Part shown: positions 1 to 35,781 of the stretch, piece by piece
Position numbering within the stretch: position 1 is the first letter of the stretch
How the letters are laid out: each line of letters begins with the position of its first letter
Source: Spirochaetota bacterium
GTDB lineage: Bacteria > Spirochaetota > UBA4802 > JAFGDQ01
Direction of reading: 5' to 3'
NCBI GenBank assembly: GCA_016934735.1
Contig: JAFGSG010000104.1
Span: 1 to 41,188 of the forward strand
DNA length: 41,188 nt
The notes under the pieces: model-generated
What the model was told of the DNA's origin: nothing
Seen by the model: the letters and a program-made list of their open reading frames with translations, nothing else
Databases searched by the model: none
Made by a program: the position numbers and the translations under genes

Positions 1-84
1 AACTCCAGCCAGGTCAGCTGCCCCGTATGCTCACCAGTTGCATGCAAAACCGAGTATTCTTGGTTTAAATTTACCAGTACTCAT
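1..84 (-). CDS. mvhD: MvhD-family subunit, selenoprotein form, 5' end only
   Basis: Only the first 28 codons lie in the window; the gene runs off the left edge. ATG at 84-82 follows a GAGG ribosome site. The reading shows the MvhD N-terminus with CNW at residues 15-17, then an in-frame TGA (31-33) as codon 18, then AYGAADLAGV. The plus-strand gene at 34936 has CNWC at the equivalent place, so the TGA is best read as selenocysteine. A short CAGC/GCTG stem with a 7-nt loop (6-20) lies 10 nt after the TGA and could be the SECIS apex, though the element is cut off. MvhD proteins carry a [2Fe-2S] cluster and pass electrons from a hydrogenase or formate dehydrogenase to HdrA. The gene lies 75 nt downstream of hdrA and corresponds to BamF in a bam-type operon. 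Conventional ORF calling would miss it. Confidence 0.82.
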
Positions 85-159
85 TTTTTCTAACCTCTTA
101 TTTTAGTGAAATACACTGTTTATTTAACTACAAACTGCCATTCAGTATAAACCAGCTCG

Positions 160-3100
160 TTAAGCGGCATCAATCTGTTTAATAATCTCTTGTTCGTCAG
201 TTAAAGCGTCAATTGCACACTCAAGTTCTTCATCCGTAAAATGCTTTAGTGAAATGGCTCCTGTAGGACATTTCGAGTTGCACAGGCCGTCTCCTTTACA
301 GAGAACGGGATTAACCACAACCTTCCTGCCCTGTTTTGTATCCTGAAGCTCTAAAGCGCTGTATGTACAGACTTCCACGCAGGCCCCGCATCCCATGCAT
401 TTTTTCTCGTCTACATAACAGACAGAACCCGAAGCAACGACTATATCATGCGAAAGAAGGGTCATTACACGGCCAGCTGCGCCGTAGGCCTGATTAATTG
501 TCTCCTGTAAAAATTTAGGATAATGAGCAAGACCGCACAGATAAACACCGTCCGTTGCGAATTCAACCGGCCTTAGTTTAACATGCGCTTCTTTAAAAAA
601 GCCGTCCGGGCTTAATGTTACCTTAAACAGGCTTGCAATTTCCTTTGTTGATTCCGAAGGAATTACCGCAGCCGCCAGCGCGAGTATGTCTGCATTGATA
701 GCCAGTTCCTTCCCCAGAACATAATCCGGAAGCGATACTCTTAATATATTGCTGCCGCCTTCATTAACCGCTTCTACTTTAGGCGCATTTTCCGGTTCAT
801 ACCGTATAAACTTAACATCCTTTTCAGACGCATCACGATAATAATCCTCTTTAAATCCGTAGGTTCTCATATCCCTGAAAAGAATATATATATCAATAAG
901 AGGATTTATTTCTTTCAGTTTTAAAGCATTCTTGACGGACTCGCTGCAGCATATTCTGCTGCAATAATTCCTGTCTTCGTTTCTGCAGCCGACGCACTGT
1001 ATCATCACGACAGTCTGGGCATTGATCACTTTTTCGTCCTGAGCGACTATTTTGCCCTCAAGCTCAATATGCGTCATTACCCTGTCATCCTGGCCGTATA
1101 GATATTCCGCAGGTACAGATACGTCAGCTCCTATTGCAATCACGGACGCGCCGTGTTTTATTTCCGTGATTCCTCTGCCGGATTTTACAGTTGTAACAAA
1201 ATTACCTATGTACCCTGTCGCAGCCGTAATTGCAGCATTTTCATATACATGAATTAAAGGATGCTGATAAACTTTCTTTATCAGCTCATCCAGATATCCC
1301 TGCACATCAAATCCTTCCAGCGTGGAATGGATCTTCCGCGTTATGCCGCCGAGATCTGGCTGCTTTTCAATCAGATAAACATCATGCCCCTGATTTGCAA
1401 TGGACAGGGCGCTGTTCATTCCTGCAACTCCGCCGCCAACGACTAAAGCCGCCTTGTTTACGGACAGGTCAAACTCCTTTAACGGCTCGAGCTTGCGGGC
1501 GCGGGCTACTGACATCCGGATTATTTCCTTTGCCTTCTCCGTGGCCTCTTCCTTTTCCTTCTGATGCACCCAGGAGTTGTGCTCTCTGATATTTGCCATT
1601 TCCATGTAATACTGGTTAATTCCCGCTTCGCGAACAGTATCGCGGAACAGCGGTTCAAGCGTCCTGGGAGAACAGGCTGCGATAACAACGCGGTTAAGGC
1701 CTTTTTCCTTTGTAATGTCCGTTATCTCCTGGGCCGAGTTCGTCGCGCAGGAAAATATCTGCTGCTGCGCATGGACAACATTCGGCAGGGTTTTGCAGTA
1801 TTCAACCGTATCAGGAACATTAACAATCCTGCTGATGTTCGCGCCGCAATGGCACACAAATACGCCTATCCTCGGCTCTTCCTGAGAAACATCTCTTTCT
1901 TCGGGATATACTCTTTCTTTAGATAGATTTCCGCGCCTGTAGTCAAGAAGCTCGCCAATCTGTGATCCGGCACCGCTTGCGCTGAAAACCGACTCCGGAA
2001 TATCAATGGGACCCTGCAGGCCGCCGCTTACAAAAACTCCGGGCCTGCTGGTTGCTACTGGATTTGCAGGATTTAGTTTACAGAAGTCATGATGGTTAAG
2101 ATCTACCCCGAATTTTTCCGCTATTTCCTTTACCTTAAGAGGAGGAGTCAGTCCGACAGACAGTACTACCATGTCGAACTCCTCTTCTTTTACTCCATCA
2201 TTATTTGTGGCATAACGTATAAAAACATTCTTTGTTACCGGGTCCTCTCTCACAATCGACGTATAACTTCTGATAAACCTTACCCCGGGAAGAGCTTCCG
2301 TCCTCTGATAATAGCGCTCAAAATCCTTCCCGTAAGAACGGATATCGTTATGGAATATTGTACATTCAGCGTCAGCATCATGATCCTTTGTCAGGATTAC
2401 CTGTTTTTGGGAATACGTACAACATACGGCCGAACAATAACTGTTATTGCCCTCTGTTACCTGTCTTGAACCAACGCACTGTATCCATGCCAGTTTATGA
2501 GGATGCTTTTTATCAGAAGCGCGCAGTATTTCTCCCGCATACGGTCCTGTGGAACCCAGCAAACGTTCAAAATCCATACTGGTTATAACGTTCTGGAAAT
2601 CGCCGTAGTGATATTCCTCTTTAACCTTAGGATCGAACGGTTCAATACCCGGAGAAAGTATTATTGCACCTACTTTTATTTCTACTTTTTCAGGCTGCTG
2701 ATTTAGATTTATCGCGTCATTCTCGCATACTGCTTCGCAGATACGGCATTTTTTTTCTTTAAGATAAAGACAGCTCTCATCAATATATGCGACAAGAGGG
2801 ATAGCCTGCGGAAAATAAATATGCACAGCTTTATTTAGAGATATATCCTGATTATATTTATCAGGATATTGGGCAGGGCAGTACTCGACACATGTAGTAC
2901 ATCCTGTGCATTTATCCTCTATGATATATCTTGGTTTTTTAACAAGCGAAACATTAAAATTTCCCGCTTCGCCTTCCACACTTTTAACTTCAGTGTAGGT
3001 TAAAACTTCAATATTTGGATGCCGGCCGACCTCGACCAGTTTGGGTGCGAGTATTCACATCGAACAGTCATTGGTCGGGAAGGTCTTGTCAAGCTGGGCC

Positions 3101-3397: not shown

Positions 3398-4549
3398 CTA
3401 AATAACTTCTGCAATAATTTCCGTAATGTCCTTTACATCTATCTTTTCTGCGACATCCATGGTCAATCTGCTGTCTTCAAACATTGTAACACAGTACGGG
3501 CATGCAGTAACCAGCACTTCTGCCCCGGCTCCTATAGCCTGTTCAATTCTCAGGTCGCAGAACCTTTCACCCTTCAGTGTTTCCATCCATACACGGCCTC
3601 CGCCGGCTCCGCAGCAAAGGCTGTCTTTTCGATTATCTGGCATCTCATTCAACTCTAAACCTGGTATACTTTTTAAGGCCTCGCGGGGTTCTTCGAATAT
3701 ACCGTTGTGCCGTCCGAGGTAGCACGGATCGTGATAAGTGATTTTCTTTGCATATTCCTTATTAATCTTAAGCCTGCCGTCTTTTATAAGTTCAAACAGA
3801 AACTGGGCAATATGAATTATCTCAAAATGTACCATGTATTCCGGATATTCATTTTTAAAAGTATGATAACAATGAGGCGAATTAACAAGAATTTTCTTAA
3901 CTCCGTTATCAATAAAAGTTTTAATGTTTTCCTTGGCTAATATATTGAATAATTCCTCATCGCCTGTTTTGCGGATACTCTCACCGCAGCAATTCTCCTT
4001 AGGACCGAGTATCCCGAAATCTACCCCTGCTTTATTTAGAATATTGGCCGTATCTCTGGCCACTTTTTTTAATCTGGGATCATAGCAGAGATAACAGCCA
4101 GGAAAATATAAAAATTCAGTTTCCTTTGTAAATGTTTTAACGTTAATTCCCTGTGCCCACTCTGCCCTCTTGGAACGCTCGCCCTTTAACGGATTTCCGT
4201 CGCCGTAAAGGCTTGCGGTTATGGCGGTGACAGGTTTGACCGGGGTGGGGAAAACCCTGTTCTCAGTTGCAATCCTGCGCAAAGCAACCATGTCGTCTAT
4301 CTGTCTTACATCTCTTGGGCATCGTTGTACGCATCTTCCGCAGGTTGTACATCGCCATATTTCTTCGCTTTCTATCTCCGTTAAACCGAATGTAGCCTCA
4401 CGGACTAATTTGCGCATGCTGAATTGCCTTACCCTGTTCCATGGGCAGACAGCATCGCATAAACCGCACTGGAAGCATCTTTTGAAAGCATCTCCGCCGC
4501 TCAGTTTAATGACTTCTACTATCTCTTTATAGTCAGCTACATTCTCCAT
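3398..4549 (-). CDS. bamD: HdrD-like iron-sulfur protein (BamD-type)
   Basis: A 383-residue cytoplasmic protein. The N-terminus holds two [4Fe-4S] ferredoxin motifs (CFQCGLCDAVCP and CTTCGRCVQRCP). The C-terminal half carries two cysteine-rich CCG-type domains (NCCGE with PGCYLC; LCCGAGGG with DPCYLG), as in HdrB/HdrD, where they bind non-cubane clusters. In bam operons the equivalent protein links the HdrA-like module to the tungsten subunit. The start has an AGGGA site about 11 nt upstream. It sits 30 bp after bamC and before hdrA, all on one strand, so it is probably co-transcribed with them. It has no Sec codon and no second copy in this window. It could instead serve another Hdr complex, since nothing in the sequence fixes the substrate. 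Confidence 0.85.
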   Translation of the reverse strand: MENVADYKEIVEVIKLSGGDAFKRCFQCGLCDAVCPWNRVRQFSMRKLVREATFGLTEIESEEIWRCTTCGRCVQRCPRDVRQIDDMVALRRIATENRVFPTPVKPVTAITASLYGDGNPLKGERSKRAEWAQGINVKTFTKETEFLYFPGCYLCYDPRLKKVARDTANILNKAGVDFGILGPKENCCGESIRKTGDEELFNILAKENIKTFIDNGVKKILVNSPHCYHTFKNEYPEYMVHFEIIHIAQFLFELIKDGRLKINKEYAKKITYHDPCYLGRHNGIFEEPREALKSIPGLELNEMPDNRKDSLCCGAGGGRVWMETLKGERFCDLRIEQAIGAGAEVLVTACPYCVTMFEDSRLTMDVAEKIDVKDITEIIAEVI

Positions 4550-4579: not shown

Positions 4580-5119
4580 TTATTCCTTCTGTGACATTCG
4601 TGTAATGGTCTCTGCTACCTTTTCTAATCCATATTTATCCACCATTGACGTCAATCCCGCCTCAACATCCTCCATTTCTACTCCTTCCTCCACTTCTTCT
4701 TCCCTTTCTTCATAAATAAGAACATCATTAAGGCACCATTCAACACACAGAGGCTTCTCACGCGGCGGGTCGTCTTCACACATATCGCATTTGAGAGGCA
4801 GACCTGAATCAGGTTCCTTAAATAAATCCCTGGATGGGCAGGAAGCCCTGCAAAATGCGCATTCATCATATTCTTTCCCGTCAATTATATACTTATCCCT
4901 CCCCATGCACTCGGCCGGCGCATATTCACCCGCAAAAACCGGAAGCCATATATTTTTTAACGGATGGCGGATAATCTGGATACGGGACCTCGCAGGATTT
5001 ATAACGCTCCATTTCGGGCTGGAATGAAAAGCTGAACAAACCACCTCACACGTGCGGCAACCGTTGCACTTATCGGCATCAACCTTTATTGTCTTTATCT
5101 TCTTTTTAATCTTGGCCAT
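4580..5119 (-). CDS. bamC: BamC-like ferredoxin-type subunit
   Basis: A 179-residue protein with three cysteine groups: CNGCRTCEVVC near residue 18, CAFCRASC near residue 87, and CDMC followed by CVEWC near residues 110-130. This suits several [4Fe-4S] clusters. The C-terminus is highly acidic. The pattern, length and the stretch CSFCRASC-like/PSRDLFKEPDSGLPLKC match my memory of Geobacter BamC. In class II benzoyl-CoA reductase it forms the BamB-BamC core and feeds electrons to the tungsten cofactor. The ATG at 5119 overlaps the end of bamB by 14 bp, which indicates translational coupling. The role follows from that similarity and the gene order, not from any substrate evidence here. Confidence 0.87.
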   Translation of the reverse strand: MAKIKKKIKTIKVDADKCNGCRTCEVVCSAFHSSPKWSVINPARSRIQIIRHPLKNIWLPVFAGEYAPAECMGRDKYIIDGKEYDECAFCRASCPSRDLFKEPDSGLPLKCDMCEDDPPREKPLCVEWCLNDVLIYEEREEEVEEGVEMEDVEAGLTSMVDKYGLEKVAETITRMSQKE

Positions 5120-7094
5120 TTTTATATAACCCTCTCTTTTCTAAGTCTTCTGCAACATAATCAAGATCCAATTCATGCAGTTTTTCTTTGGTAGGGATGC
5201 CATCCATGTTCCATCCTTTATACTTATAATATGTGGATAGAAGATTCTCTTCGAGTTCTGGGAATCTTTTTTTCCAGTGGTCTTCAGGCGGTTTCTCATC
5301 TGCCCTGCTCATACCTCTTCTAATATTAAATGCTCTGTGTAAGTTCCGACTCCTGTTGACTATCTTTTTAAGACCTGCTTCGTCAAGATCCAACCCCGTA
5401 GCCGCAGAGATAATCTTGGGGTAATTATGTATGTGCCACGGCGGCTTCAAACAAAATGACGACATACCAGCGCACACACAGCAGGCATCATCGATATTGT
5501 GCAGCATCTCCATCCAATCAACAATCTCAGAACACATATCGGCAGTCGGATAATATGGGTTTGCTTTTTCACCGCGCGGTTCCCAGTCCAAAAAATACTG
5601 TTTAAAATGTTCATCAGGAAGCTGCGGCCAGTCCTTCACAAAAGCTTCTCTATCCTCTTTGTTAGGAAAAGCAGCCTGTGGCCAGTTCCCTTCCATCTGG
5701 GTAATACTTATCTTCTCGTTTGTAGAATACATCAGATAATAAAGAGGATCCATCATCCCTAGCTTAATGTTCATCTGTTCATGTTTTTTTATGGTATTAT
5801 GGTCGTAGGCTTCTGCACCTTTGCCGATCTTGCGGGCAGCCCAGTAAACGCCGTCTGCCAGAATATCCCCGATCCCTTCTCTGTGGGCAAGCCTGTCCAG
5901 CAGCCAAAAAAATCTTCCTCTTTTATCGGAGGGACATGCTTCATATTTATCCGTCCCGGCGAAATCCTTGTCTGTAAGAATACCTGCTTCATAAAGCTCA
6001 ACAGCAAAAGCAAGTATCTGTGGTGTTGAAAATGAATCGACACCGTACTCAAACGCTCGTTTTGCTATTTTATATCCGAAATCAAGATCATCTACCTCAG
6101 CGCCCATCAGATAGGTGAGTTTCGAAAAGCATTTCATCATATACGAGGGGACATCCTCGTGAGTGATCAATCCGCCACATTGGGTTGGACAATTAAAACA
6201 GCTTATAAGCCGCTTTGTTGATTCCAACTGTGTTTTTTTCCAACTTTCCTCTATTTCTTTTGTCCAGAAATCTTTTCTACGTCTACGTGCATTCCCCCAT
6301 GCGAAGCTCTCTGTATGCCACTTCTCATCAGTGTGTTTCATTTCCGCCGGAGAACCTATCCCGGATAAAATGGTCATTATTCCAGGGAGAGGATTTTCAT
6401 TCCGGAACTTTATGTATTTAGTCATTTCCTTCATCTGTTCCATAAATTCATCGCCATGAGCGAGATAAATATCTTTTGTACCGCGAACAGCCACTGCCTT
6501 TATCTTTTTATCCCCCATAACAGCTCCGCCTCCGCCCCTGCTGGAGCTAGACCTTGACTGCTCAATTGAGGCAACGAAAACCTTATTCTCACCGGCAGGG
6601 CCTATAGCTGCCACCTGAGCGTTCGGCTGATTCAATTCATTTCTAATAAGTTCCTGAGTTTCAAGAGCGCCTTTTCCAACCAGATGAGAAGCATCTCGTA
6701 TTTCCACTTTGTCGTTATTGATCCATATATACACCCACTCAGGCGATTTGTTGCGGAATATCACTTTATCATAGCCTGCATATTTCAACTCCGCAGACCA
6801 GAATCCTCCCATCATTGGATATGCCAACAAGCCAGTTTGAGGAGAAATGAAGGTAACAATGGTACGATTTGCGCTGAAAGCAGGTGTACCGATCAGAAGA
6901 CCGGAACTAAATATCAGTAGATTCTCAGGATCAAAAGCTTTTACTTCAGGCGGTACCCTGTCCCAGTGTATCTTTACACTGGTGCCGAGTCCTCCAAGAT
7001 GTGTCTCCATTAATTTAGGGTCGGTTTCTACTCGTTCTATATTTCCTGTTGCCAGGTCTATTTCTAAGTTATATCCTGTTTCTGCGTATCTCAT
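5106..7094 (-). CDS. bamB: BamB-like tungsten enzyme of the aldehyde ferredoxin oxidoreductase family
   Basis: A 662-residue AOR-family protein, close to the length of BamB. The start is the ATG at 7094 (MRYAETGY), with AGGAG 6 nt upstream; an upstream in-frame ATG lacks a ribosome site. The cluster ligands CFNCPTQC lie at 299-306, with a late CCVC supplying the last. From this start, Glu251, His260 and Cys322 fall at the positions I recall for active-site residues of crystallised Geobacter BamB, and the surrounding text (KWHTESFAWGNAR, YMMKCF) agrees. BamB reduces the aromatic ring of benzoyl-CoA to a dienoyl-CoA without ATP, driven by low-potential electrons. It needs a tungsto-bis-pyranopterin cofactor. 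It leads an operon with bamC, bamD, hdrA and mvhD. A related cyclic acyl-CoA substrate is possible, since no aromatic-pathway genes are visible nearby. Confidence 0.88.
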   Translation of the reverse strand: MRYAETGYNLEIDLATGNIERVETDPKLMETHLGGLGTSVKIHWDRVPPEVKAFDPENLLIFSSGLLIGTPAFSANRTIVTFISPQTGLLAYPMMGGFWSAELKYAGYDKVIFRNKSPEWVYIWINNDKVEIRDASHLVGKGALETQELIRNELNQPNAQVAAIGPAGENKVFVASIEQSRSSSSRGGGGAVMGDKKIKAVAVRGTKDIYLAHGDEFMEQMKEMTKYIKFRNENPLPGIMTILSGIGSPAEMKHTDEKWHTESFAWGNARRRRKDFWTKEIEESWKKTQLESTKRLISCFNCPTQCGGLITHEDVPSYMMKCFSKLTYLMGAEVDDLDFGYKIAKRAFEYGVDSFSTPQILAFAVELYEAGILTDKDFAGTDKYEACPSDKRGRFFWLLDRLAHREGIGDILADGVYWAARKIGKGAEAYDHNTIKKHEQMNIKLGMMDPLYYLMYSTNEKISITQMEGNWPQAAFPNKEDREAFVKDWPQLPDEHFKQYFLDWEPRGEKANPYYPTADMCSEIVDWMEMLHNIDDACCVCAGMSSFCLKPPWHIHNYPKIISAATGLDLDEAGLKKIVNRSRNLHRAFNIRRGMSRADEKPPEDHWKKRFPELEENLLSTYYKYKGWNMDGIPTKEKLHELDLDYVAEDLEKRGLYKNGQD

Positions 7095-7340
7095 TTTTAA
7101 CTCCTGTATATTCCTGATTACCTGAATTCGCGGTATGCTTTTTGAAAAATAATGCGCATGCACTTAAGAAAAACAGCTTTCATCGATCAGATAAGAGTTG
7201 AAATTGCTTAAGCTGCTGGAGTTATTTTTCTATTACCATCAATGCCATGAGTTCAGAGGACAATAAGCCTTTATAATTAGATAAAAAATAATTCTTCTTG
7301 ATAATAAAAATATTTATAATTTTAAATACATTATGACTAC

Positions 7341-7803: not shown

Positions 7804-8604
7804 TTGGATGACATGATTTATGAAGAAATGGATGTAGTCAGGATCATTACGGATAATGATAATATTCGTACCCAGGATATCAGTAAAAAAGTGATCGCTG
7901 AAATATCTCTTAAAATAATCGTAAACGATATGGAACTCGTCTCTGTTCTTTGCCTTAACCAGTATCATGAAGAACTGGCAGTCGGTTTCCTTTACAATGA
8001 AGGGATTATCAGTTCATATACAGATATCGAGAAAATCAATTTCAATAGTAAATTACTGGCTGTTCTAATCAAGCTAAAAGACGGTGTCGTAATTGATCGT
8101 CAGGAAAGCTTAAGAAGCCTCACCTCAGGCTGCGGTAAATGTTACACTTATATTAATCCTCTTAAACAAAGCCAATACAAATCAGTCTCTGCCAATACGG
8201 CCTATACGGCGAAAAATGTCCTGAATTTAATGAATGACTTTATCAGCAGATCAAAAATATATGCTACAGTCGGAGGCGTTCATAGTGTTCTTTTTTATAC
8301 TCCGGATTATGAAATACTCATTGAAGATATCGGCAGGCACAACTGTTTTGATAAGATTACCGGTTCAATACTAAAAGAAAATAAGCTTAATTTATTCGAT
8401 CAGGGTATTGTATTTGTATCAGGAAGAATCTCTTCTGAAATCATAATGAAAATTATCCGGATAGGCGTCGGAATTCTCGTCTCTAAATCAACACCGACAA
8501 CCGCTGCCATAAAGCTGGCACGGCAATATAATGTAACATTGCTTGGTTATGTCCGCAACAGCGGGGGGTATATTTACAGCTGCCCCGAAAGATTATCTCT
8601 CTGA
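7804..8604 (+). CDS. fdhD: FdhD, sulfurtransferase for formate dehydrogenase maturation
   Basis: A 266-residue FdhD. The family carries sulfur from a cysteine desulfurase (IscS) to the molybdenum/tungsten cofactor, and formate dehydrogenase is inactive without that sulfido ligand. Visible motifs are TSGCGKC, with Cys110 and Cys113 as the sulfur-carrying pair; the VGGVHSVLF region; EDIGRHNCFDK; and FVSGRISSEI, all in family order. The start is TTG at 7804, chosen because AGGAGA lies 11 nt upstream; the next ATG (7813) is too far from it. It lies between the bam operon and fdhA-Sec on the opposite strand to both. It probably serves both formate dehydrogenases in this window. Confidence 0.95.
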   Translation: MDDMIYEEMDVVRIITDNDNIRTQDISKKVIAEISLKIIVNDMELVSVLCLNQYHEELAVGFLYNEGIISSYTDIEKINFNSKLLAVLIKLKDGVVIDRQESLRSLTSGCGKCYTYINPLKQSQYKSVSANTAYTAKNVLNLMNDFISRSKIYATVGGVHSVLFYTPDYEILIEDIGRHNCFDKITGSILKENKLNLFDQGIVFVSGRISSEIIMKIIRIGVGILVSKSTPTTAAIKLARQYNVTLLGYVRNSGGYIYSCPERLSL

Positions 8605-9060: not shown

Positions 9061-11757
9061 CTAGTTAACTTTATCAATTCGCACTGCACAGGCTTTATAT
9101 TCCGCTGTCTGCGTTACCGGATCATAGACCGGATTAGTAAGCCAGTTTGCGCATGCTTCCCTGAAATGGAAGGCCATCCAGACAAGCCCCTTGGGAACCT
9201 GCCGTGTCACGCGGGCTTTAACCAGAACCTCGCCACGTCGCGATTTGACCGAAATTTTTTCTCCATCGACAATGCCTTTTTCCAATGCATCCGCTGCAGA
9301 GATATCTGCAGTCTCTTCAGGAAGCAGATCATTAATACCCTGAGACCGCCCGGTTTGTGTCCGTGTGTGATAATGATACAAACGCCGTCCGGTGGACAGT
9401 ACCATCGGATATTCCTTGTCGGGAACTTCCGCGGGAGGTATCCAGTCAATTGCTTTAAAGACGCCCTGCCCGCAGGTAAAGCAGCCGTCCTTATGTAGCG
9501 TACATGTTCCCGGATGATCTTCAGTTGGAGCAGGCCACTGAATACCGTCATTTTCAATCCTGGTGTATTTAATACCAGCCATGGATGGCGCAAGTACCGT
9601 TATTTCATTATCCCAGATTTCCCGTGCGCTATCCGATTTCCAGTCGTGGCCCATTCGTTTGGCGATTTCCTTAAATATCCACCAGTTTGGTTTTGCTTCA
9701 CCAGGAGCTACGCTGGCTGTGCGAACGCGGTTTACACGCCGCTCGGAGCTGGTAAATGTGCCGTCATTTTCACTCCATGCGGAAGACGGCAGAATGACAT
9801 GCGCAAAACGCGTCGTTTCAGTCTGGAAAATATCCTGACAGACCAGGAATTCCGCTGATTGAAGACAATGTTCTACATGATGAATATCAGGTTCGGTATT
9901 TGCAAGATTCTCGCCGAAAACATAGAAAGCTTTAATTTTTCCGGTGGTCAGACCCTCCATCATTGTAGGCATCATAAGGCCCGGTTTTTCCGGAAGTGAT
10001 TTTACTTTCCATGCTGCTTTAAACTTTTCTCTGGCTGTCTCGTTATCCACACGCTGATATCCCGGAAAAACATTCGGCAAAGCACCCATATCGCAGGCGC
10101 CCTGAACGTTATTCTGGCCGCGCAAAGGATTAACGCCGCCGCATTCAAAACCAACATTACCCAGAAGCATCTGAAGATTGGCACATGACATAACATTGTT
10201 CACGCCGCATATATGTTCCGTAATTCCCAGCGTATACATCAGCATCGCCGGTTTAACAGAGGCAAGTCTGCGCGCAAGGTCACGAATTGTATCTGCTGAA
10301 ACGCCGCAGATCTCAGCCGCACGTTCCGGTGGATATTCCATCGCCTTCTTTTTGACCTCTTCAAACCCGACAGTGCAGGTACTTACATAGTTCTTGTCAT
10401 AAAGATCTTCATTAATAAGCACATTCATCACACCATTAATCAGAGCAACGTCGGATCCCACTTTGATCTGCACATGCATCCTTGCAAAATCAACTAAATC
10501 GGTACGTCTCGGATCTATAACAATAAGTTCTGCACCGGCGAGAGCAGCATCCTTGACAAATGTTGCCGCGACCGGATGCGCTTCTGTCATATTGGAACCT
10601 ATAACCATGATCATTTTTGCTTTCTTAAAATCAGCAAAAGAATTTGTCATTGCACCTGAACCGAAAGAAGTTGCCAGACCGGCAACAGTCGGAGCGTGTC
10701 AGGTACGCGCGCAGTGATCGATATTATTTGTACCGATCACCGCACGGAACAGTTTCTGCATCTGATAGGAATCTTCATTGATGCTGCGGGCGCAGCTGAC
10801 GCCGCCCAGGGCATCCGGCCCATCACTTTTTATGATTTCCTTAAATTTGTTTGCTACAAGGTCAAGAGCTTCATCCCATGAGGCCTCACGGAATTTACCA
10901 TCAGCTTCACGGATAAGCGGCGTTTTTAGTCTATCTTCGGAATAGATAAAGTCATAACCAAAACGCCCTTTCACGCAGAGTCGTCCCTGATTCGGTTCAG
11001 CATTTTCGACTGCCGTGACCTTTATGATTTTCCCGTCCTTAACATGCAGCCACTGCTGGCAGCCTACACCGCAATACGGACAGGTTGTACGGATCTTCTG
11101 CACTTCCCACGGGCGCCCCAATCCTTTGGCTTTCTTTTCCGTTAACGCCCCGGTCGGGCAGACCTCAACACACTGTCCGCAGAATACACATTCGCTTTCA
11201 TTGTATGGATTGTCGCCGCCGGTAACAATCTTGCTTTCTGCACCTCTATAACCCTGCGTAATTGCACGGTTAACAACAACTTCATTGCAGGCCTGAACAC
11301 ATCTTCCGCATAGGATACAGCGGCTGAAATCGCGGACAATGAATGGATTTTCATCTTCAGTAGGATAAATATTTTCTTTTTGGGGAAATCTTAAATTTGT
11401 AATTTTATAAAAATAAGCCAGATCCTGCAGGCGGCAGTCGCCATTTGACTCGCAAACAAGACAGTTGTGCCTACCACTGGCGAGCAACAGCTCAACATTC
11501 ATTTTTCGTGCTTTGTGGACAAGCTCGCTATCCGTTAGTACGTCCATTCCCGTCGTAACCGGTGTAGAACAGGATGCCATCAGGGAGCGAGCGCCTTTGA
11601 CCTCAACAAGACATATACGGCAGGCGCCTGTAGGTGTAGCACCTTTCAGATAACAAAGTGTTGGAATTTCAACTCCGCCATTGCGGGCAGCATCGAGAAT
11701 CATCTGGCCTGGCGTAAATGGTGTTTCTATGCCGTTTAAAAAAAATGTATTACTCAT
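9061..11757 (-). CDS. fdhA: Formate dehydrogenase catalytic subunit, selenocysteine form
   Basis: An 898-residue molybdenum/tungsten formate dehydrogenase interrupted by one in-frame TGA (10699-10701), which is residue 353 and the active-site selenocysteine. The context is DHCART-Sec-HAPTVAG, and the paralogue at 28574 has Cys353 there. Domains in order: a NuoG-like [2Fe-2S] domain (CYLKGATPTGACRIC), a His/Cys cluster (HNCLVCESNGDC), a two-cluster ferredoxin (CILCGRCVQAC, CVFCGQCVEVCP), the Mo-bisPGD domain with its own cluster (CPYCGVGC), and a C-terminal dinucleotide-binding domain. The start ATG at 11757 has GGAG about 8 nt upstream; the ATG 15 nt earlier is less well placed. It interconverts formate and CO2, passing electrons to partner proteins through the N-terminal clusters. 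No dedicated NADH or hydrogenase subunit is adjacent, so HdrA/MvhD are plausible partners. Confidence 0.96.
10670..10701 (-). promoter_or_regulatory. Sec codon and SECIS element of fdhA
   Basis: The TGA (10701-10699) is followed 12 nt later by GTTGCC (10686-10681), loop GGTCT (10680-10676) and GGCAAC (10675-10670). This is a perfect 6-bp stem with a 5-nt loop. The spacing and the GGTCT loop match the E. coli fdhF SECIS as I remember it. The hairpin would recruit SelB with Sec-tRNA. Confidence 0.93.
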
Positions 11758-21202: not shown

Positions 21203-21231
21203 AAGGAATGTTTTATTTTGATTTATTAAGC

Positions 21232-23698: not shown

Positions 23699-23710
23699 TG
23701 AAGGAAAGAG

Positions 23711-24660: not shown

Positions 24661-24674
24661 TGGGAGATATTAAC

Positions 24675-26695: not shown

Positions 26696-26697
26696 TT

Positions 26698-28573: not shown

Positions 28574-31264
28574 ATGATCCAGACATTTATTTTAAATGGA
28601 AAAGAAACCGTATTCACCCCGGGACAAATGATTCTTGATGCAGCACAAAAAGCCGGAATTAAAATACCAACGTTATGTTTCCTGAAAGATACCGCTCCTA
28701 CAGGTGCATGCCGAGTCTGTCTTGTCGAGGTTAAAGGAGCGCGCTCATTAATGGCTGCATGTTCCACTCCGGTAACACCCGGAATGGAAGTTATGACTGA
28801 TACTGGACTTGTACATAAAGCCCGGAAAATGAGTATTGAACTATTACTTGCCAGCGGTGAACATAATTGTCTTGTTTGTGAAGCAAACGGCGATTGCCGT
28901 TTGCAGGATTTAGCATATTTTTATAAAATTTCCAATTTAAGATTTCCTAAAAGTGAAGCCAAGTTTCATATTGAAGATGATAATCCATTCATCATCCGCG
29001 ATGCAAGCCGCTGCATACTTTGCGGACGCTGCGTACAGGCCTGTAATGAGCTTACTGTAAACCGGGCTATATCCCATGGTTATCGCGGTGCTAATAGCAG
29101 GATTGTTACCGGCGGCGACCAGCCTTATAATAACAGCGAATGCGTCTTCTGCGGGCAATGCGTCCAGGTGTGCCCGGTAGGCGCACTTTCTGAAAAAAAA
29201 TCCAAAGGACTTGGAAGATCATGGGAACTTAAAACAGTCCGCACGACATGTCCTTATTGCGGTGTCGGCTGCCAGCTTAACCTTCATATGAAGGGCGAGC
29301 AGATAGTGAAAATTACCGGCGCTGAAGATGGCGCACCGAATTATGGAAGATTATGCGTCAAAGGCAGATTCGGGTATGACTTTATTTACTCGAGAGACAG
29401 GCTTACTACCCCGCTGATTCGTCAGGAAAACGGCGATTTCCGAAAAGCTTCATGGGATGAAGCATTTGATCTTGTGGCGGAGAAGTTCAAAGAAATAATT
29501 AAGGAATCCGGGCCGGATGCGGTCGCGGGTATTAGCTGCGCCCGCAGTATAAATGAAGATTCATATAACATGCAAAAACTATTCAGGGCTGTCTTTCAGA
29601 CAAACAATATCGATCATTGCGCCCGCGTCTGCCATGCACCGACAGTCGCAGGCCTGGCCGCGTCTTTCGGCTCCGGTGCTGGAACCAATTCGATAAGCGA
29701 GTACAAGGACGCAAGGATGTTCTTCTGCATAGGCACAAATATGACGGAAGCGCATCCCGTGGCATCTTACTATGTTAAGCAGGCGAAACTAAATGGCGCG
29801 AAACTCATAGTCGCCGATCCGAGATACCATGAACTGGCAAAGATGTCGGATATATTCGCGCAAATCAAAGTCGGATCCGATGTTGCATTCCTGAACGGCA
29901 TAATGAATGTACTGATTAAAGAGAATTTATATAACAGAAAATACATCGAGGAAAATTGCACGGGATTCGAAGATCTGAAAAAGGCAGTAATTAATTATCC
30001 ACCTGAAAAAGCAGCTGAAATAAGCGGAGTGTCCGCTGAAACAATAATCCGGATCGCTCATGAAATGGCTGCCACAAGGCCGTCCATGCTGATCTACACG
30101 CTGGGAATAACAGAACATTCCTGCGGCACAAACAATGTTATGAGCTGCGCAAATCTCCAGATGCTGCTCGGGAACGTGGGTGTTGAATTCGGCGGCGTGA
30201 ACCCGCTACGTGGGCAGAATAATGTGCAGGGCGCATGCGACATGGGCGCGCTGCCCGGGGTTTTTCCGGGTTACCAGAGCGTGACAGTTCCGGAGAACAG
30301 GGAAAAATTCATGAAGGCATGGGGAGTTAAAAGTCTTCCGGATAAGCCGGGCTTGATGATAAATGCCATGATGGAAGGATTGCTTTCCAAAAAAGTAAGG
30401 GCATTATGGGTGTTTGGGGAAAACCTGGCAAATGCAGAGCCGAATATCGGCCATGCCGAAAAGTGCCTAAGTTCCGCCGAATTCCTGGTTGTGCAGGATA
30501 TTTTTCCGAACGAAACGACAAAGTTCGCACATGTAATACTGCCTTCCGCGTCCTGGTGTGAGGACGAAGGGACATTTACAAGCCTTGAAAGACGGGTAAG
30601 CATGGTCAGATCGGTAAAAAAAGCTCCGGGCGTTGCAAAACCGAATTGGTGGATATTCAAAGAACTGGCGAGAAAAATGGGGCACGACTGGGCTTCCGGC
30701 AGCGGACGGGAAATCTGTGATAACGAACTGGCCGTATTATGCCCTATGTTCGCGGGTATAAAATTTTCCCGTATCAAGAAAGACGGTCTGCAGTGGCCAT
30801 GCCTCTCAGAAGAACATCCCGGCACGCCTATTGTTCATAAAGACGGAAAATTTATTAGCGGAAAAGGAGCGCTAAAAGGCATTGAATGGACGCCTCCTGA
30901 GGAAATCGCGGATAAAAATTATCCGTTTGTGTTAAGCACCGGCAGAAGGCTCTCGCAGTATCATACGCGAACACAGACAGGACGCAGCGGCATGGATACT
31001 ATTTACAGCCGTGAAACAGCGGATATTTCCTATGCCGATGCTTCGGAAAAAGGGATAAAGGACGGAGATATGGTTATAGTGGAATCCAGACGCGGGAAAG
31101 TAACCGTTCCCGCAAGGATTACGGACACTGTTCCAAAAGGCCTTATATGGATGACGTTCCATTACCGTGACGGTAATTGTAATTGGCTTACCAATAACGC
31201 ATATGACACTGTTGCGCAGACGCCTGAATACAAGGCCTGCGCCGTACGGATTGAGAAAGCATAA
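28574..31264 (+). CDS. fdhA: Formate dehydrogenase catalytic subunit, cysteine form
   Basis: An 896-residue paralogue of the Sec enzyme at 9061, with the same domain order: [2Fe-2S] (CFLKDTAPTGACRVC), His/Cys cluster (HNCLVCEANGDC), two ferredoxin clusters, CPYCGVGC, and the Mo-bisPGD domains. The active-site residue is Cys353 (HCARVCHAPTV, codon 29630-29632), at exactly the Sec353 position. The two are highly similar along their length, so they arose by duplication. Cys enzymes of this kind are usually slower than Sec forms but need no selenium. AGGAGA precedes the ATG. The upstream region carries a structured leader and a palindrome that the Sec gene lacks. A terminator follows, so this is a single-gene unit. 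A Sec/Cys fdh pair with selenium-dependent transcripts is known from Treponema primitia. Confidence 0.96.
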   Translation: MIQTFILNGKETVFTPGQMILDAAQKAGIKIPTLCFLKDTAPTGACRVCLVEVKGARSLMAACSTPVTPGMEVMTDTGLVHKARKMSIELLLASGEHNCLVCEANGDCRLQDLAYFYKISNLRFPKSEAKFHIEDDNPFIIRDASRCILCGRCVQACNELTVNRAISHGYRGANSRIVTGGDQPYNNSECVFCGQCVQVCPVGALSEKKSKGLGRSWELKTVRTTCPYCGVGCQLNLHMKGEQIVKITGAEDGAPNYGRLCVKGRFGYDFIYSRDRLTTPLIRQENGDFRKASWDEAFDLVAEKFKEIIKESGPDAVAGISCARSINEDSYNMQKLFRAVFQTNNIDHCARVCHAPTVAGLAASFGSGAGTNSISEYKDARMFFCIGTNMTEAHPVASYYVKQAKLNGAKLIVADPRYHELAKMSDIFAQIKVGSDVAFLNGIMNVLIKENLYNRKYIEENCTGFEDLKKAVINYPPEKAAEISGVSAETIIRIAHEMAATRPSMLIYTLGITEHSCGTNNVMSCANLQMLLGNVGVEFGGVNPLRGQNNVQGACDMGALPGVFPGYQSVTVPENREKFMKAWGVKSLPDKPGLMINAMMEGLLSKKVRALWVFGENLANAEPNIGHAEKCLSSAEFLVVQDIFPNETTKFAHVILPSASWCEDEGTFTSLERRVSMVRSVKKAPGVAKPNWWIFKELARKMGHDWASGSGREICDNELAVLCPMFAGIKFSRIKKDGLQWPCLSEEHPGTPIVHKDGKFISGKGALKGIEWTPPEEIADKNYPFVLSTGRRLSQYHTRTQTGRSGMDTIYSRETADISYADASEKGIKDGDMVIVESRRGKVTVPARITDTVPKGLIWMTFHYRDGNCNWLTNNAYDTVAQTPEYKACAVRIEKA

Positions 31265-31306: not shown

Positions 31307-31410
31307 ACTATTATATAATAAAACGTGTACATCCTTAAAAAGATCAACTTAAAGTTAACAAACTATGATCAATTTACATTACTATAAAATGTTTATTTTT
31401 ATATATTGAG

Positions 31411-31526
31411 AAAGCTACCGGAAACCCGTGCGGCTTCCCTTTGACTTTCCCACCGCCCAGTTCACGCCTTAATACTCAGTATATCTCCTGAGATTCCGGC
31501 GCTGTAAAAGGCGGCGGATCTTTTAT
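31411..31526 (+). promoter_or_regulatory. Unrecognised structured leader RNA, copy B (upstream of hdrA-Cys)
   Basis: It aligns with copy A through the blocks CCCGTGCGGC, CCCTTT, ACCGC, CACGCCTTAA, CTCAG, TCCTGAGATTCCGGCGC and AAGGCGG. The P1 stem is GGAA/TTCC here and GGGA/TCCC in copy A, a compensatory change. P2 is CTCAG/CTGAG with an 8-nt loop of different sequence. P3 ends in GGATC followed by TTTTATAA. A -10-like TATAAA (31383-31388) lies just upstream, so transcription would begin close to the element. The hdrA-Cys start lies about 215 nt downstream. Confidence 0.7.
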
Positions 31527-31743
31527 AATCAGGAGTATTCCGGTTTTAAAATTTTTTTAAAAGTATTTTCAATCCGTCTCAAAAACAGCTGCCAATTTTC
31601 AATTTGAAAGGATTTTAACTAATCATAGCCAGCCAAGTATTTTTTTGAGATAGTTACCTGTGAATTTAACATAATTCATCCATCGGCTTAGTGCCGCAAT
31701 AATGCATTGTAAATTAAAAAATTTTTTACAGGGAGACAAAGAA

Positions 31744-34700
31744 ATGGATAAAGAAATATTATTAAGCGATAATATCCGGCAGCTTTGCCAGAGCCTTGGA
31801 GGCAATAACTTCGGGGACGTAATGATAGTCGGCGGAGGGATCAGCGGCATTCAGGCGGCGCTCGATCTCGGAACCGCAGGGTTTAAGGTCTACTTTGTTG
31901 AAAAATCACCGACAGTAGGCGGCAAGATGGCGCATCTTGATAAGACATTCCCAACTAATGACTGCTCCATGTGTATCGAATCTCCTAAATTTGTTGAATG
32001 TAACAGACACCCCAACATTGAGATTATGTCCTATACTGAAGTCAAACAAGTTGAAGGAGAAGCCGGAAACTTCACTGTTACCCTGATTAAAAAGCCAAGA
32101 TATGTTATAGAGAGCAAATGTACGGGCTGCACAGTCTGTGTTGAGTACTGTCCTCTAAAGTACCCTGATGAATTCAATCAGGGAATATCGAATAATAAAG
32201 CCATACATATATATTTCGCACAGGCGATCCCGCTTAAGCCTTACATAGATGAAACCTGTCTTTACCTGAAAGAACAGAAATGCCGCATTTGTGAAGGGGT
32301 ATGCAAGAATGATGCAATAGATTTAAAACAAGTGCCGGAGAGAGTAGAAGTAAAAGTTGGAGCAATAATTCTGTCCCCGGGCATTGAAGCGTATAATCCT
32401 ACTTTAAAGAAAGAATATCATTACAAAGAATTTACGAATGTAGTAACAGCCCTTGACTATGAAAGACTTTTATGCGCAACCGGGCCTTATGAAGGCGAAA
32501 TTCTACGCGCTTCCGACAAAAAACACCCGCATAATATAGCCTGGGTTCACTGTGTCGGATCCAGACAGGTTACCGAAGGTGCCAACAGCTACTGTTCCGC
32601 AGTATGCTGTACATATACCCAAAAGCAAGTTATCCTTACAAAAGATCATGACGCAGAAGCAAACTGCACCATATTCCATAACGACATCCGTTCTTATGGC
32701 AAGGATTTTGAGCGGTTCTACCAGAGAACGGAGAATCTTCCCGGTGTCAAATTTATCAGAAGTTATGTATCAATAGAAAGAGAAGATCCCATAACCAAAA
32801 ATGTAACCATACGCTATTCTACTCCTGATGACGGCATTAAAGAAGCGGAATTTGATATGGTAGTGCTATCCGTAGGATTGGCTCCGCCTTCCAATGTACA
32901 GGATATCGCTAAAGCATTTGGTATTGAGTTGAATGCCCACGGATTTTGCAAAACCAATCCCGTCAATCCTATGGAGACAACCCGCCCGGGAATTTTTGTA
33001 AGCGGAGCTTTCCAGGGTCCCATGGATATTCCGGAGTCTGTTTTGTCAGCCAGCGGGGCCGGGTCCCAGTGCGGCGAACTCCTTTCGTACAGGCGCGGGA
33101 ACCTTTCCAAAGCAAGGGTATATCCGGAGGAAAGGGACGTCTCAAATGAAGAGCCAAAGATAGGAGTCTATGTATGTCATTGCGGAGCCAATATAGGAAG
33201 AATAGTAAACGTTCCTGATACGATTGAATACTCAAAAACATTGCCGAATGTTGTTCATGCTGAAGAAAGCCTCTTTATCTGTTCCACCGAAGCAGCTGCA
33301 ATGCTGGCAAAGGACATTAAAGAAAGAGGGCTAAACAGAGTAATTGTAGCTGCCTGTACTCCGAGAACACATGAGCCGCTGTTCAGGGATACGCTTCGAG
33401 AGGCGGGAATTAATCAGTATTATTATGATATGGCAAACATCAGGGAACACTGCTCATGGGTGCATTCAAAAGAAAAGGAATCTGCTACACAAAAGGCAAA
33501 GGATATTATCCGCATGTCCGCGGCGCGTGCCTGTTTTTTAGAGCCTCTGCAGGAATTTAACCTGCCGGTCAATAAGGTAGCGATAGTGGTAGGCGGAGGC
33601 ATAGCCGGCATGGTCAGCGCCCTTTCCATAGCTAATCAGAAGCATGAAGTCCATCTGATCGAAAAAGAAAAAGAACTCGGCGGGACAGCACGGAAGCTTT
33701 ATTATACGCTGGAAGGAATAGACGCACAGGCTTACCTGGCCGACCTAATCCAAAAAGTCTATAAGCATCCGTTGATACACATATATACCAATGCCGCTAT
33801 ACCTGATGTTACAGGCTATGTCGGGAATTTTACCACTAAAGTTCAATCCGACAGAGGACTGACAGAGATAAAACATGGAGCAGCCGTAATTGCAATAGGC
33901 GCTGATGTATATACACCGGCAGAATACCTTTACGGGCAAAACGAAAGAGTGATCACTCATCTTGAGTTGGAAGAAAAGATCATCAATAACGATGAAACCG
34001 TAATTAAGTCGGAAAGCATTGTAATGATTCAATGCGTGGGCTGCAGGAATGAAGAAAGAAATTACTGCAGCAAGATTTGCTGCAGCGAATCGATAAAGAA
34101 CGCCTTGAAGCTTAAGGAAATAAATCCTCAGATGGATATTTATATTCTATTCAGGGATATGAGGACATATGGTTTCATAGAAAACTATTACAGGGAAGCC
34201 TCTGAAAAAGACGTAAAATTTATCCGCTATGAGCCGGATACCAAACCTCAGGTGGAAGCAATTAATGACAACGGAAAAAGCGCGTTAAGGGTTACCATGC
34301 CGGATTATATTCTAAACAAGGAATTAAGTATAAAGGCCGACATACTCGTATTGGCCGCAGCCGTAATTCCATCAGCGGAAAGTCAGGAAATATCAAAAAA
34401 ATTCAAGATTACCCTGGGCCCGGATGGTTTTTGCCAGGAAGCTCATGTTAAGTTACGGCCGGTAGACTTTGCAGCTGAAGGCGTTTACCTTTGCGGAATA
34501 GCACATTATCCCAAGCATATATCTGAGACGATCAATCAGGCTTACGGAGCAGCGGGACGCGCTTTGACTCTTCTGGCAAATGATACTGTCGTAGCGTCAG
34601 GATCAGTCTGTACCGTAGAGGAAAAAATGTGCATTGGATGCGGTGCATGCGCGCCGGCATGCACTTACGGAGCTGTTCAGCTTCAGGAAACAAAACAGGG

Positions 34701-34839
34701 GAGAAAAGCTACTGTCATTCCCGTACTATGTAAAGGATGCGGACTGTGCAACTCAAAATGTCCTACAGGCGCAATTTCACTTAAACATTATACAGAAAAA
34801 GAACTTTTTGCTCAAATCCTTGCAGGGCTTGCAAAGTAA
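31744..34839 (+). CDS. hdrA: HdrA-like flavin/iron-sulfur protein, cysteine form
   Basis: A 1031-residue paralogue of the Sec-HdrA at 160. The start is ATG 31744 with GGGAG about 10 nt upstream; an in-frame ATG at 31702 has no ribosome site. Cys77 (TNDCSMC) stands where the other copy has Sec77. FAD motifs (IVGGGISG near residue 28 and VVGGGIAGM mid-protein), the CTGCTVCVEYCP ferredoxin and the paired cysteine segments agree throughout. The last ferredoxin motif is intact ([12 protein letters not shown], Cys999). HdrA is the bifurcating flavin subunit of Hdr-type complexes. No HdrB/C or bamD-like gene accompanies this copy, so it probably joins partners encoded in the left operon. It is preceded by leader copy B and followed after 96 bp by mvhD-Cys. 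Confidence 0.95.
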   Translation: MDKEILLSDNIRQLCQSLGGNNFGDVMIVGGGISGIQAALDLGTAGFKVYFVEKSPTVGGKMAHLDKTFPTNDCSMCIESPKFVECNRHPNIEIMSYTEVKQVEGEAGNFTVTLIKKPRYVIESKCTGCTVCVEYCPLKYPDEFNQGISNNKAIHIYFAQAIPLKPYIDETCLYLKEQKCRICEGVCKNDAIDLKQVPERVEVKVGAIILSPGIEAYNPTLKKEYHYKEFTNVVTALDYERLLCATGPYEGEILRASDKKHPHNIAWVHCVGSRQVTEGANSYCSAVCCTYTQKQVILTKDHDAEANCTIFHNDIRSYGKDFERFYQRTENLPGVKFIRSYVSIEREDPITKNVTIRYSTPDDGIKEAEFDMVVLSVGLAPPSNVQDIAKAFGIELNAHGFCKTNPVNPMETTRPGIFVSGAFQGPMDIPESVLSASGAGSQCGELLSYRRGNLSKARVYPEERDVSNEEPKIGVYVCHCGANIGRIVNVPDTIEYSKTLPNVVHAEESLFICSTEAAAMLAKDIKERGLNRVIVAACTPRTHEPLFRDTLREAGINQYYYDMANIREHCSWVHSKEKESATQKAKDIIRMSAARACFLEPLQEFNLPVNKVAIVVGGGIAGMVSALSIANQKHEVHLIEKEKELGGTARKLYYTLEGIDAQAYLADLIQKVYKHPLIHIYTNAAIPDVTGYVGNFTTKVQSDRGLTEIKHGAAVIAIGADVYTPAEYLYGQNERVITHLELEEKIINNDETVIKSESIVMIQCVGCRNEERNYCSKICCSESIKNALKLKEINPQMDIYILFRDMRTYGFIENYYREASEKDVKFIRYEPDTKPQVEAINDNGKSALRVTMPDYILNKELSIKADILVLAAAVIPSAESQEISKKFKITLGPDGFCQEAHVKLRPVDFAAEGVYLCGIAHYPKHISETINQAYGAAGRALTLLANDTVVASGSVCTVEEKMCIGCGACAPACTYGAVQLQETKQGRKATVIPVLCKGCGLCNSKCPTGAISLKHYTEKELFAQILAGLAK

Positions 34840-34935
34840 TCAGGAAAACAAATCAGATCAATACATCGGTTTAAGATATTTAATATTATATGAACTAAAA
34901 AAATCTGGATTATAAAATACGGAGGTAAAACAATA

Positions 34936-35781
34936 ATGAGCTCAGAAGATAAGTTTATACCGAAAATGTTAGGTATAATTTGCAACTGGTGCTGTTACGG
35001 AGGAGCGGATTTATGCGGAGTATCCCGTTTCCAATATCCTACTTATATAAGACTGATAAGGGTGATGTGTTCCGGCAGGATTGATATGAAACACATACTG
35101 ACGGCTTTTTTAAACGGAGCAGACGCAATATTTTGCGGAGGCTGCCATATTAACGACTGCCATTATAATCCGGAAGGAAATTACGATGCGTTAAGCATGG
35201 TAAATTTGTGCAAAAAATTACTGGAGCATACAGGAATAAATCCAAAACGCTTAAGACTTGAATGGGTATCTGCCGGAGAGGGAATCCGTTTCGCGAATAT
35301 TATGAATGAATTCGCAAAAGAGGTAGAAGAATTAGGGCCTCTCGGTAAAAGCGAAGGAATAGCTCCGGACGAAATGAAATCAAGGTTTGAAAAGATTATA
35401 AAACTTATCCCATATTTTAAACTTGTAAAAATGAAGGAGCTGGCGATACATAATCCGGATCAGGAATCGTACACCAGGCTCTATACTGCTGAAGAAATCG
35501 ACAAATTAATTCGCGAAGCACCATCATACTGGATCGATCCTGAAAAATGCCAGGCATGCATGACCTGCGCGAAGAGATGCCCTGTTGATGCAATTATAAG
35601 TGCAAAGCAGCAGGTACACATTGTTGATCAGGAAAAATGCATAAAATGCGGAACATGCCTGGCAGCCTGCCCTCCCAGGTTCGGAGCTGTAACAAAAGTC
35701 GTGGGTGCGCCTGTTCCGCCGCCGCTTCCGGAAGATAAAAGAGCGATTATCCGGAAGGCCAGAAAAGAAAAGGCAAGCTAA
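34936..35781 (+). CDS. mvhD: MvhD-family subunit with ferredoxin extension, cysteine form
   Basis: A 281-residue protein. Residues 1-140 form the MvhD domain with CNWC (Cys16/19), CSGRID and CGGCHINDC. Cys19 aligns with the Sec of the partial gene at the left edge. Residues 200-250 add two [4Fe-4S] motifs (Cys205/208/211/215 and Cys235/238/241/245). A plain MvhD is about half this length, so the ferredoxin domain is a fusion that would extend the electron path. MvhD links an electron donor such as formate dehydrogenase or hydrogenase to HdrA. GGAGG precedes the ATG. It shares the hdrA-Cys transcript by position and has no leader element of its own. Confidence 0.93.
   Translation: MSSEDKFIPKMLGIICNWCCYGGADLCGVSRFQYPTYIRLIRVMCSGRIDMKHILTAFLNGADAIFCGGCHINDCHYNPEGNYDALSMVNLCKKLLEHTGINPKRLRLEWVSAGEGIRFANIMNEFAKEVEELGPLGKSEGIAPDEMKSRFEKIIKLIPYFKLVKMKELAIHNPDQESYTRLYTAEEIDKLIREAPSYWIDPEKCQACMTCAKRCPVDAIISAKQQVHIVDQEKCIKCGTCLAACPPRFGAVTKVVGAPVPPPLPEDKRAIIRKARKEKAS

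What the first reader, a model, noticed from the sequence alone, without database searches (positions are those of the whole stretch)
1..35781. Three Sec/Cys paralogue pairs; the second module duplicates exactly the selenoprotein subset of the first
Left copies of fdhA, hdrA and mvhD each carry an in-frame TGA (Sec353, Sec77, Sec18). Right copies carry Cys353, Cys77 and Cys19. The non-seleno partners bamB, bamC and bamD have no second copy. This pattern is what a selenium-independent backup set would look like, and it covers a whole electron-transfer chain rather than one enzyme. A Sec/Cys fdh pair regulated by selenium is known in Treponema primitia, and Cys backup sets including HdrA exist in methanogens. 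I do not know of a bacterial three-gene set including hdrA and mvhD.
Basis: partly seen in the sequence, partly recalled or inferred. Interest (0 to 1): 0.93.

Follow-up and report, generated by a model that had tools for sequence, protein, structure and literature searches.

The report
Selenium-free backup enzymes behind RNA switch
This bacterium carries cysteine-only second copies of three selenium-containing electron-transfer proteins, and those copies sit behind a conserved RNA leader, predicted to fold, that would likely switch them on when selenium runs short.

Summary
Left fdhA, hdrA and mvhD carry in-frame TGA at the Sec site; right copies carry Cys; selA, selB, tRNA-Sec and selD are in the genome. 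"Duplicate of the left selenoprotein subset" fails: in the HdrA tree the right copy sits in an all-Cys clade of 15 genomes (this one, Sporotomaculum, and relatives of Syntrophorhabdus and Desulfarculus) with no bam gene in any held flank, apart from the bam-linked Sec clade. Twelve of the 15 also show the Sec form by residue. Cys FdhA arose repeatedly (5 state changes; one origin rejected, p 1.7e-6) and, among 25 genomes, occurs in 9 of 13 with the Cys hdrA clade and 0 of 12 without. That favours a selenium-independent set.

Unexpected: a ~160-nt structured RNA element, unmatched in Rfam 15, precedes both right-hand Cys units and 7 of 7 Cys cassettes in the Syntrophorhabdus class, but 0 of 12 Sec units examined. 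It also precedes double-cubane reductase genes and, tentatively, yedE near selD. Selenium genes follow the cassette in 6 of 15 genomes. Best model: a leader RNA that likely controls Cys isozymes by selenium status. Expression and ligand are untested; eight Cys units elsewhere lack it.

The parts
1..84 (-). mvhD, Sec form (start of gene; TGA at 33-31; continues on contig C140)
160..3285 (-). hdrA, Sec form (TGA codon 77 at 3057-3055)
   Evidence: NF040770 932.6 bits, below its cut-off of 1100
3398..4549 (-). bamD-like, HdrD/CCG family
   Evidence: Pfam CCG
4580..5119 (-). bamC-like ferredoxin
   Evidence: weak Fer4 matches; name from gene order
5106..7163 (-). bamB, benzoyl-CoA reductase family, single copy in the genome as held
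   Evidence: PDB 4z3w 1.5e-297
7804..8604 (+). fdhD
   Evidence: Pfam FdhD-NarQ
9061..11772 (-). fdhA, Sec form (TGA at 10701-10699)
   Evidence: TIGR01591 809.7 bits
28267..28427 (+). structured RNA element, copy 1, upstream of fdhA-Cys
   Evidence: fold z -4.34
28574..31264 (+). fdhA, Cys form (Cys codon 29630-29632)
31383..31541 (+). structured RNA element, copy 2, upstream of hdrA-Cys
   Evidence: fold z -2.08; terminator-like hairpin 31500-31516
31702..34839 (+). hdrA, Cys form (Cys codon 31972-31974)
34936..35781 (+). mvhD, Cys form (Cys codon 34990-34992)
   Evidence: Pfam FlpD
36116..36391 (+). C-terminal remnant of a double-cubane reductase gene
   Evidence: tblastn 39% (1e-17) and 43% (8e-21)
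36404..37567 (+). SclA-like cysteine desulfurase / selenocysteine lyase family
   Evidence: TIGR01977 483 bits, above cut-off; SclA model 407 bits, below its cut-off
37627..38232 (+). yedF, selenium-metabolism protein
   Evidence: TIGR03527 208.6 bits, above cut-off

Best explanation
The right-hand genes encode all-cysteine forms of three selenoproteins encoded to their left, and they likely serve as a selenium-independent formate dehydrogenase/HdrA-MvhD electron-transfer set that a conserved RNA leader would switch on when selenium is scarce. Shown: the Sec and Cys codons, the Sec machinery, the separate ancestry of the Cys hdrA lineage, its co-occurrence with Sec forms, the scattered Cys FdhA rows, and a conserved element with covarying pairs upstream of the Cys units. 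Inferred: with selenium, the closing helix followed by its U-run (and, in the Syntrophorhabdus class, pairing of the UCUUUU stretch with the GGAGG ribosome site) would hold the Cys genes off; without selenium the Sec genes would stop at UGA, the leader would refold, and FdhA-Cys, HdrA-Cys and MvhD-Cys would take over electron transfer between formate, pyridine nucleotide and ferredoxin. Untested: the ligand (a selenium metabolite, or SelB with Sec-tRNA), complex formation, and whether the Cys pair also docks on BamBCD.
For: Cassette clade: 15 HdrA rows, all Cys, none with a bam gene in its held flank; ingroup Sec77 HdrA in one clade (28 Sec and 2 rows lacking the residue), 25 of the 28 with a bam gene in the held flank. 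Of the 15 cassette genomes 12 show a Sec HdrA by residue and G166 has a TGA in an HdrA fragment; in G103 the residue is missing, in G185 only a Sec MvhD was found. Cys FdhA: 9 of 25 clade-bearing genomes, all 9 with Sec FdhA too; 9 of 13 genomes with the Cys hdrA clade against 0 of 12 without (one-sided Fisher 0.00035; 0.00098 if G163 counts as having it); 5 changes, and one origin rejected, p-AU 1.65e-6, active-site column masked in the 35 clade rows. RNA: 9 of 9 Cys units (2 here, which led to the discovery, and 7 in the Syntrophorhabdus class) against 0 of 12 Sec units with at least 995 nt upstream. Structure: 92.9% of cells paired against at most 54.6% when slid; 15 pairs changed on both sides, reached by 0 of 500 shuffles. 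Selenium links: selD follows Cys mvhD in G186 and G103, a YedF-like ORF in G178, G180, G184, SclA-like and yedF here.
Against: No expression data. The element is missing from 8 Cys cassette units outside this genome and the Syntrophorhabdus class, and from the other Cys hdrA loci among 80 scanned, so it does not mark Cys HdrA in general. It also precedes double-cubane reductase genes, whose selenium link is only provisional in print (PMC10418091, passages). The yedE copy is weak: 15.7 bits, E 0.018, fold z -0.35, 94 and 19 of 1000 shuffles as good. No ribosome site with a start codon follows the two window copies closely. A separate HdrA lineage without bam genes also fits a separate function. 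SECIS-like folds after the three TGAs are not clearly better than shuffles. The 13 copies of the RNA come from two lineages, and its structure was derived from the same alignment that was counted. Genomes are related, so the Fisher values are not independent counts.
Confidence: 0.55

Rival explanations
1. The Cys cassette is a specialised electron module, not a backup: FdhA-HdrA-MvhD would feed low-potential electrons to another enzyme, such as a double-cubane reductase, while the Sec HdrA-MvhD serves benzoyl-CoA reductase.
For: Clade without bam genes; double-cubane genes near the cassette in G099, G178, G180, G184 and a remnant here; leader shared with such genes in G178 and G184.
Against: Does not explain the repeated Cys state of FdhA only where the Cys hdrA clade is present, nor the neighbouring selD, yedF and SclA-like genes.
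Confidence: 0.3
2. The RNA leader is real but answers another signal (molybdenum or tungsten, redox state, or a product of the double-cubane reductase); the cassette merely shares it.
For: The leader directly precedes double-cubane genes in G178 and G184 and a remnant of such a start in G180; in G185 it is followed by codons that resemble that gene's start, as if copied from it.
Against: Sec fdhA, also a molybdenum or tungsten enzyme, lacks it in 7 of 7 loci.
Confidence: 0.2
3. Simple local duplication of the left selenoprotein genes followed by Sec-to-Cys change.
For: Same three families within 36 kb of one contig.
Against: Right HdrA is 83% identical to a Syntrophorhabdus HdrA and 73% to the left one; separate clades.
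Confidence: 0.03
4. In-frame TGAs are assembly errors or pseudogenes.
For: Metagenome assembly in 150 contigs.
Against: Same TGA in relatives at the same codon and full Sec machinery.
Confidence: 0.01

Closest known systems
Methanococcus Sec/Cys isoform sets (Vhu/Vhc, Fru/Frc, HdrA)
   Same: Cys isoforms of HdrA and VhuD-type proteins beside Sec forms; Cys isogenes and yedE rise on selenium depletion (PMC11097638, passages).
   Different: There a LysR protein (HrsM) represses and FdhA has no Cys isoform; here bacteria, a Cys FdhA and an RNA leader.
Class II benzoyl-CoA reductase Bam complex
   Same: bamB-C-D-hdrA-mvhD order with Sec MvhD; BamB matches 4z3w. In Geotalea daltonii selenite raised bamF1 transcripts (PMC13119186, passages).
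   Different: HdrA is also Sec; no bamGHI seen next to the operon.
Sec/Cys FdhF pair of Treponema primitia
   Same: Sec and Cys formate dehydrogenases in one genome.
   Different: One enzyme only; no HdrA or MvhD pair (recalled).
Bacterial Sec hdrA/frhD operons (Syntrophobacter; PMC1794560, passages)
   Same: Sec HdrA and delta-subunit genes together.
   Different: No all-Cys partner set with a leader RNA appeared in the passages seen; that paper reports very few Cys homologues of FdhA in Sec-containing organisms.

Membership tests
Selenoprotein (UGA-decoded) | In-frame UGA at a known Sec site with homology on both sides | tested here: met
Selenoprotein (UGA-decoded) | selA, selB, tRNA-Sec and selD in the genome | tested here: met
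Selenoprotein (UGA-decoded) | SECIS hairpin after UGA | tested here: inconclusive
   z -1.09, -0.20, -0.01
Class II benzoyl-CoA reductase | BamB of the AOR family | tested here: met
Class II benzoyl-CoA reductase | bamGHI in the cluster | tested here: inconclusive
   none among the window ORFs scanned or the eight C140 ORFs scanned, which are chemotaxis and transporter genes plus one without match; other contigs not searched
Selenium-responsive Sec/Cys isoform set | Sec and Cys copies in one genome | tested here: met
Selenium-responsive Sec/Cys isoform set | Expression follows selenium | not testable with these tools
   needs culture
Riboswitch / cis-regulatory RNA | Conserved structure with covariation, sense strand upstream of genes | tested here: met
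Riboswitch / cis-regulatory RNA | Match to a described family | tested here: not met
   no match over the element in Rfam 15
Riboswitch / cis-regulatory RNA | Ligand binding that changes expression | not testable with these tools
   bench work

The most novel reading that the evidence does not exclude
The element is the first selenium-responsive riboswitch class: a leader RNA that reads selenium status and controls, as one regulon, the cysteine isozymes of a formate dehydrogenase/HdrA-MvhD chain, double-cubane reductases and the YedE selenium transporter.
Probability: 0.3. Interest if true: 0.95.

Novelty: new variant of a known kind. Interest (0 to 1): 0.8.

Why it matters
How microbes sense selenium and swap selenoproteins for cysteine isozymes is largely open; in the worked example seen here, an archaeal LysR repressor, the signal is not identified (PMC11097638, passages), and a bacterial LysR_Se regulator is only predicted (PMC5322559, passages). 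A defined leader RNA on the Cys genes makes the question testable in a test tube: does it bind a selenium compound, and does it gate the isozymes? It also gives a bacterial case in which three linked redox proteins, FdhA included, have Cys partners, with repeated independent Sec/Cys change of FdhA.

Tried and rejected
Local duplication was rejected by the HdrA tree. SECIS folds after the TGAs were uninformative. No shared neighbouring gene explains the cassette outside the Syntrophorhabdus class: the flanking genes scanned are unrelated or unmatched. Short shared words between other intergenic regions of the window were mostly AT-rich and left aside. One search counts two TGAs in the HdrA frames of G002 and G106; residue 77 reads Sec in G002 and Cys in G106, the other TGAs were not located. 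A first per-genome table merged orthologues of different genomes and was redone (replaced by 64). G162 holds an FdhA fragment of the clade that was not carried into the 25-genome table; G148 has a lone Cys FdhA of another clade, and its HdrA and MvhD were not searched.
Full report
The window is a whole contig (C136) of a genome held as 3.55 Mb in 150 contigs, 90.85% complete. On the minus strand lie fdhA and, apart from it, bamB-bamC-bamD-hdrA-mvhD; on the plus strand, about 17 kb beyond fdhA, lie fdhA-hdrA-mvhD. Left fdhA, hdrA and mvhD each have one in-frame TGA at the position of a Cys codon in the right copy. The left mvhD is cut by the contig end and continues on C140, which shares 55 bases with the window; the next genes there are cheB, cheR, cheA and other chemotaxis genes on the other strand, so the left operon ends at mvhD, and no bamGHI was seen beside it. 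Sec decoding is present: selB, tRNA-Sec and selA in one stretch, and selD, which itself reads TGAGUASK. BamB matches the benzoyl-CoA reductase structure 4z3w (from Geobacter metallireducens, recalled) and occurs once in the genome as held.

Ancestry. In a quick tree of 111 HdrA rows rooted on 4 more distant ones, the Sec77 HdrAs of the ingroup fall in one clade of 30 rows (28 Sec, 2 lacking the residue); 25 of the 28 have a bam gene in the held flank. The right HdrA falls in another clade of 15 rows, all Cys, none with a bam gene in the held flank (some flanks are short, for example the 4-kb contig of G166), 6 with fdhA within 6 kb. Both clades lie in a group of 53 rows in which 6 of the 8 remaining rows have a bam gene in the flank. 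So the right cassette is not a copy of the left selenoprotein genes but a separate lineage. The nearest relatives examined are of the Syntrophorhabdus class: HdrA 83%, MvhD 82-87% (the latter over 92 residues), FdhA 86% over residues 330-896 and 77-78% over full length.

Co-occurrence. I searched FdhA in 63 genomes of the class of Desulfarculus and 46 of the class of Syntrophorhabdus (the class names used elsewhere are mine), then gave 25 of these 109 genomes, those with a close FdhA or a known cassette, to the HdrA and MvhD searches. With this genome, 25 carry an FdhA of the clade; G103 carries none. Nine have a Cys FdhA, and all nine also have a Sec FdhA. Cys FdhA is found in 9 of 13 genomes with the Cys HdrA clade and in 0 of 12 without it. 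In six of the nine it lies directly before hdrA (in G102 the gene is split over two contigs); in G109 and G161 no cassette hdrA lies in its held flank; in G156 the contigs do not tell. On a careful FdhA tree of 38 rows the nine Cys rows are scattered: 5 state changes, and holding them together is rejected (p-AU 1.65e-6) with the active-site column masked in the 35 clade rows. Read with Sec as the ancestral state, which is inference, FdhA of this clade lost selenium several times, each time in a genome that also has Cys HdrA and Cys MvhD. Of the 15 genomes with the Cys cassette clade, 12 show a Sec HdrA by residue, G166 has a TGA in a fragment, G103 lacks the residue, and G185 shows only a Sec MvhD.

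A leader RNA. The gaps before fdhA-Cys (541 bp) and before hdrA-Cys (437 bp) share an element, 72% identical over 132 nt. It folds better than shuffles (z -4.34 and -2.08). A model made only from the two window copies finds it in loci of the Syntrophorhabdus class, and a model made only from those finds both window copies at 7e-21 and 2e-12, the next best at 0.63. A consensus of 13 copies has 38 pairs, 15 with changes on both sides; against shuffles and slid partners this stands out. With the covariance model R1 I searched 62 loci (928 kb), 80 loci (1.21 Mb), 21 loci (381 kb, partly the same) and 95 loci (518 kb, partly the same). It precedes both Cys units here and the first Cys gene of 7 of 7 cassettes of the Syntrophorhabdus class (G102, G103, G178, G180, G184, G185, G186), and 0 of 12 Sec units of this genome and of that class with at least 995 nt of upstream sequence (7 Sec fdhA, 5 bam operons). 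It also directly precedes a double-cubane reductase gene in G178 and G184 (458 and 461 bits against a cut-off of 350), and a remnant of such a start before an activase in G180. Eight Cys units lack it: cassettes of G104, G157, G161, G109, G099 and the Cys fdhA of G161, G109, G156; among the 80 named-genome loci only one, a Syntrophorhabdus cassette, has it. No Rfam 15 family matches over the element.

Selenium context. selD directly follows Cys mvhD in G186 and G103, in its Cys form. A YedF-like ORF follows in G178, G180, G184; here an SclA-like enzyme and yedF follow, after a double-cubane remnant. That is 6 of 15 cassette genomes; in the others these genes were not found in the held flank, which in G102 and others ends at or near mvhD. 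In Desulfosporosinus lacus a Cys/Cys bam cluster lies beside yedF, selD, an SclA-like gene and a double-cubane gene, without the element. In this genome's selD region a weak third copy (15.7 bits, E 0.018) lies about 300 nt before yedE (TIGR04112, 485 bits). Sequence-only models rank it third in 174 kb of this genome each time, but not significantly (E 0.2-1.2); 94 and 19 of 1000 shuffles align as well, and its own fold is no better than shuffles (z -0.35). I treat it as tentative. Passages of PMC10418091 link the double-cubane protein provisionally to selenium; passages of PMC5322559 link YedE, YedF, Sec lyase and 2-hydroxyglutaryl-CoA dehydratase-like proteins; passages of PMC11097638 report Cys isoforms and yedE rising on selenium depletion in Methanococcus maripaludis, where FdhA has no Cys isoform.

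Mechanism. Most likely the Cys set is a selenium-independent stand-in, and the leader gates it. The U-rich stretch after the closing helix is conserved, a terminator-like hairpin is scored in copy 2 but not in copy 1, and in the Syntrophorhabdus class a predicted helix pairs this stretch with GGAGG. These suggest a shut-off form. Which signal opens it is inference; selenium status is the best guess from the genes around it. That FdhA, HdrA and MvhD form one complex is inferred from gene order and from known HdrA complexes (5odc and others match by sequence).

In print. Ten library searches, of which I saw the top listings only, showed no title or abstract start on a selenium riboswitch or on this bacterial three-gene set; the library lacks most subscription journals, and one paper I looked for was not held. 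Scores: interest 0.8; backup role with leader control 0.55; selenium riboswitch 0.3.

Noticed in passing
window 18449-28032: Cluster of aldehyde oxidoreductase (NF045668), diclust_near_Sec, DVU_1556 methyltransferase, C-GCAxxG-C-C, TrsS radical SAM and DVU_1553 ligase families; two of the family names mention selenoprotein members, but these ORFs are open without TGA.
   Followed up: no
L215 576-16811 (Desulfosporosinus lacus): All-Cys bam/hdrA/mvhD cluster beside yedF, selD, SclA-like and double-cubane genes; a Sec hdrA/mvhD bam cluster lies on another contig (L216).
   Followed up: partly
L341 7247-7752 (G185): Two near-identical tandem copies of the RNA element before hdrA-Cys, the first followed by codons that resemble the double-cubane gene start.
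   Followed up: partly
L359 6178-7263 (G000:C84): A stretch in a sigma-factor-like ORF reads N (translated as X).
   Followed up: no
L342 5424-6428 (G161): AraC-family regulator upstream of the Cys hdrA-mvhD pair that lacks the RNA element.
   Followed up: no
L234 (G148): Cys FdhA in another FdhA clade, sister to a Sec FdhA of G147.
   Followed up: no
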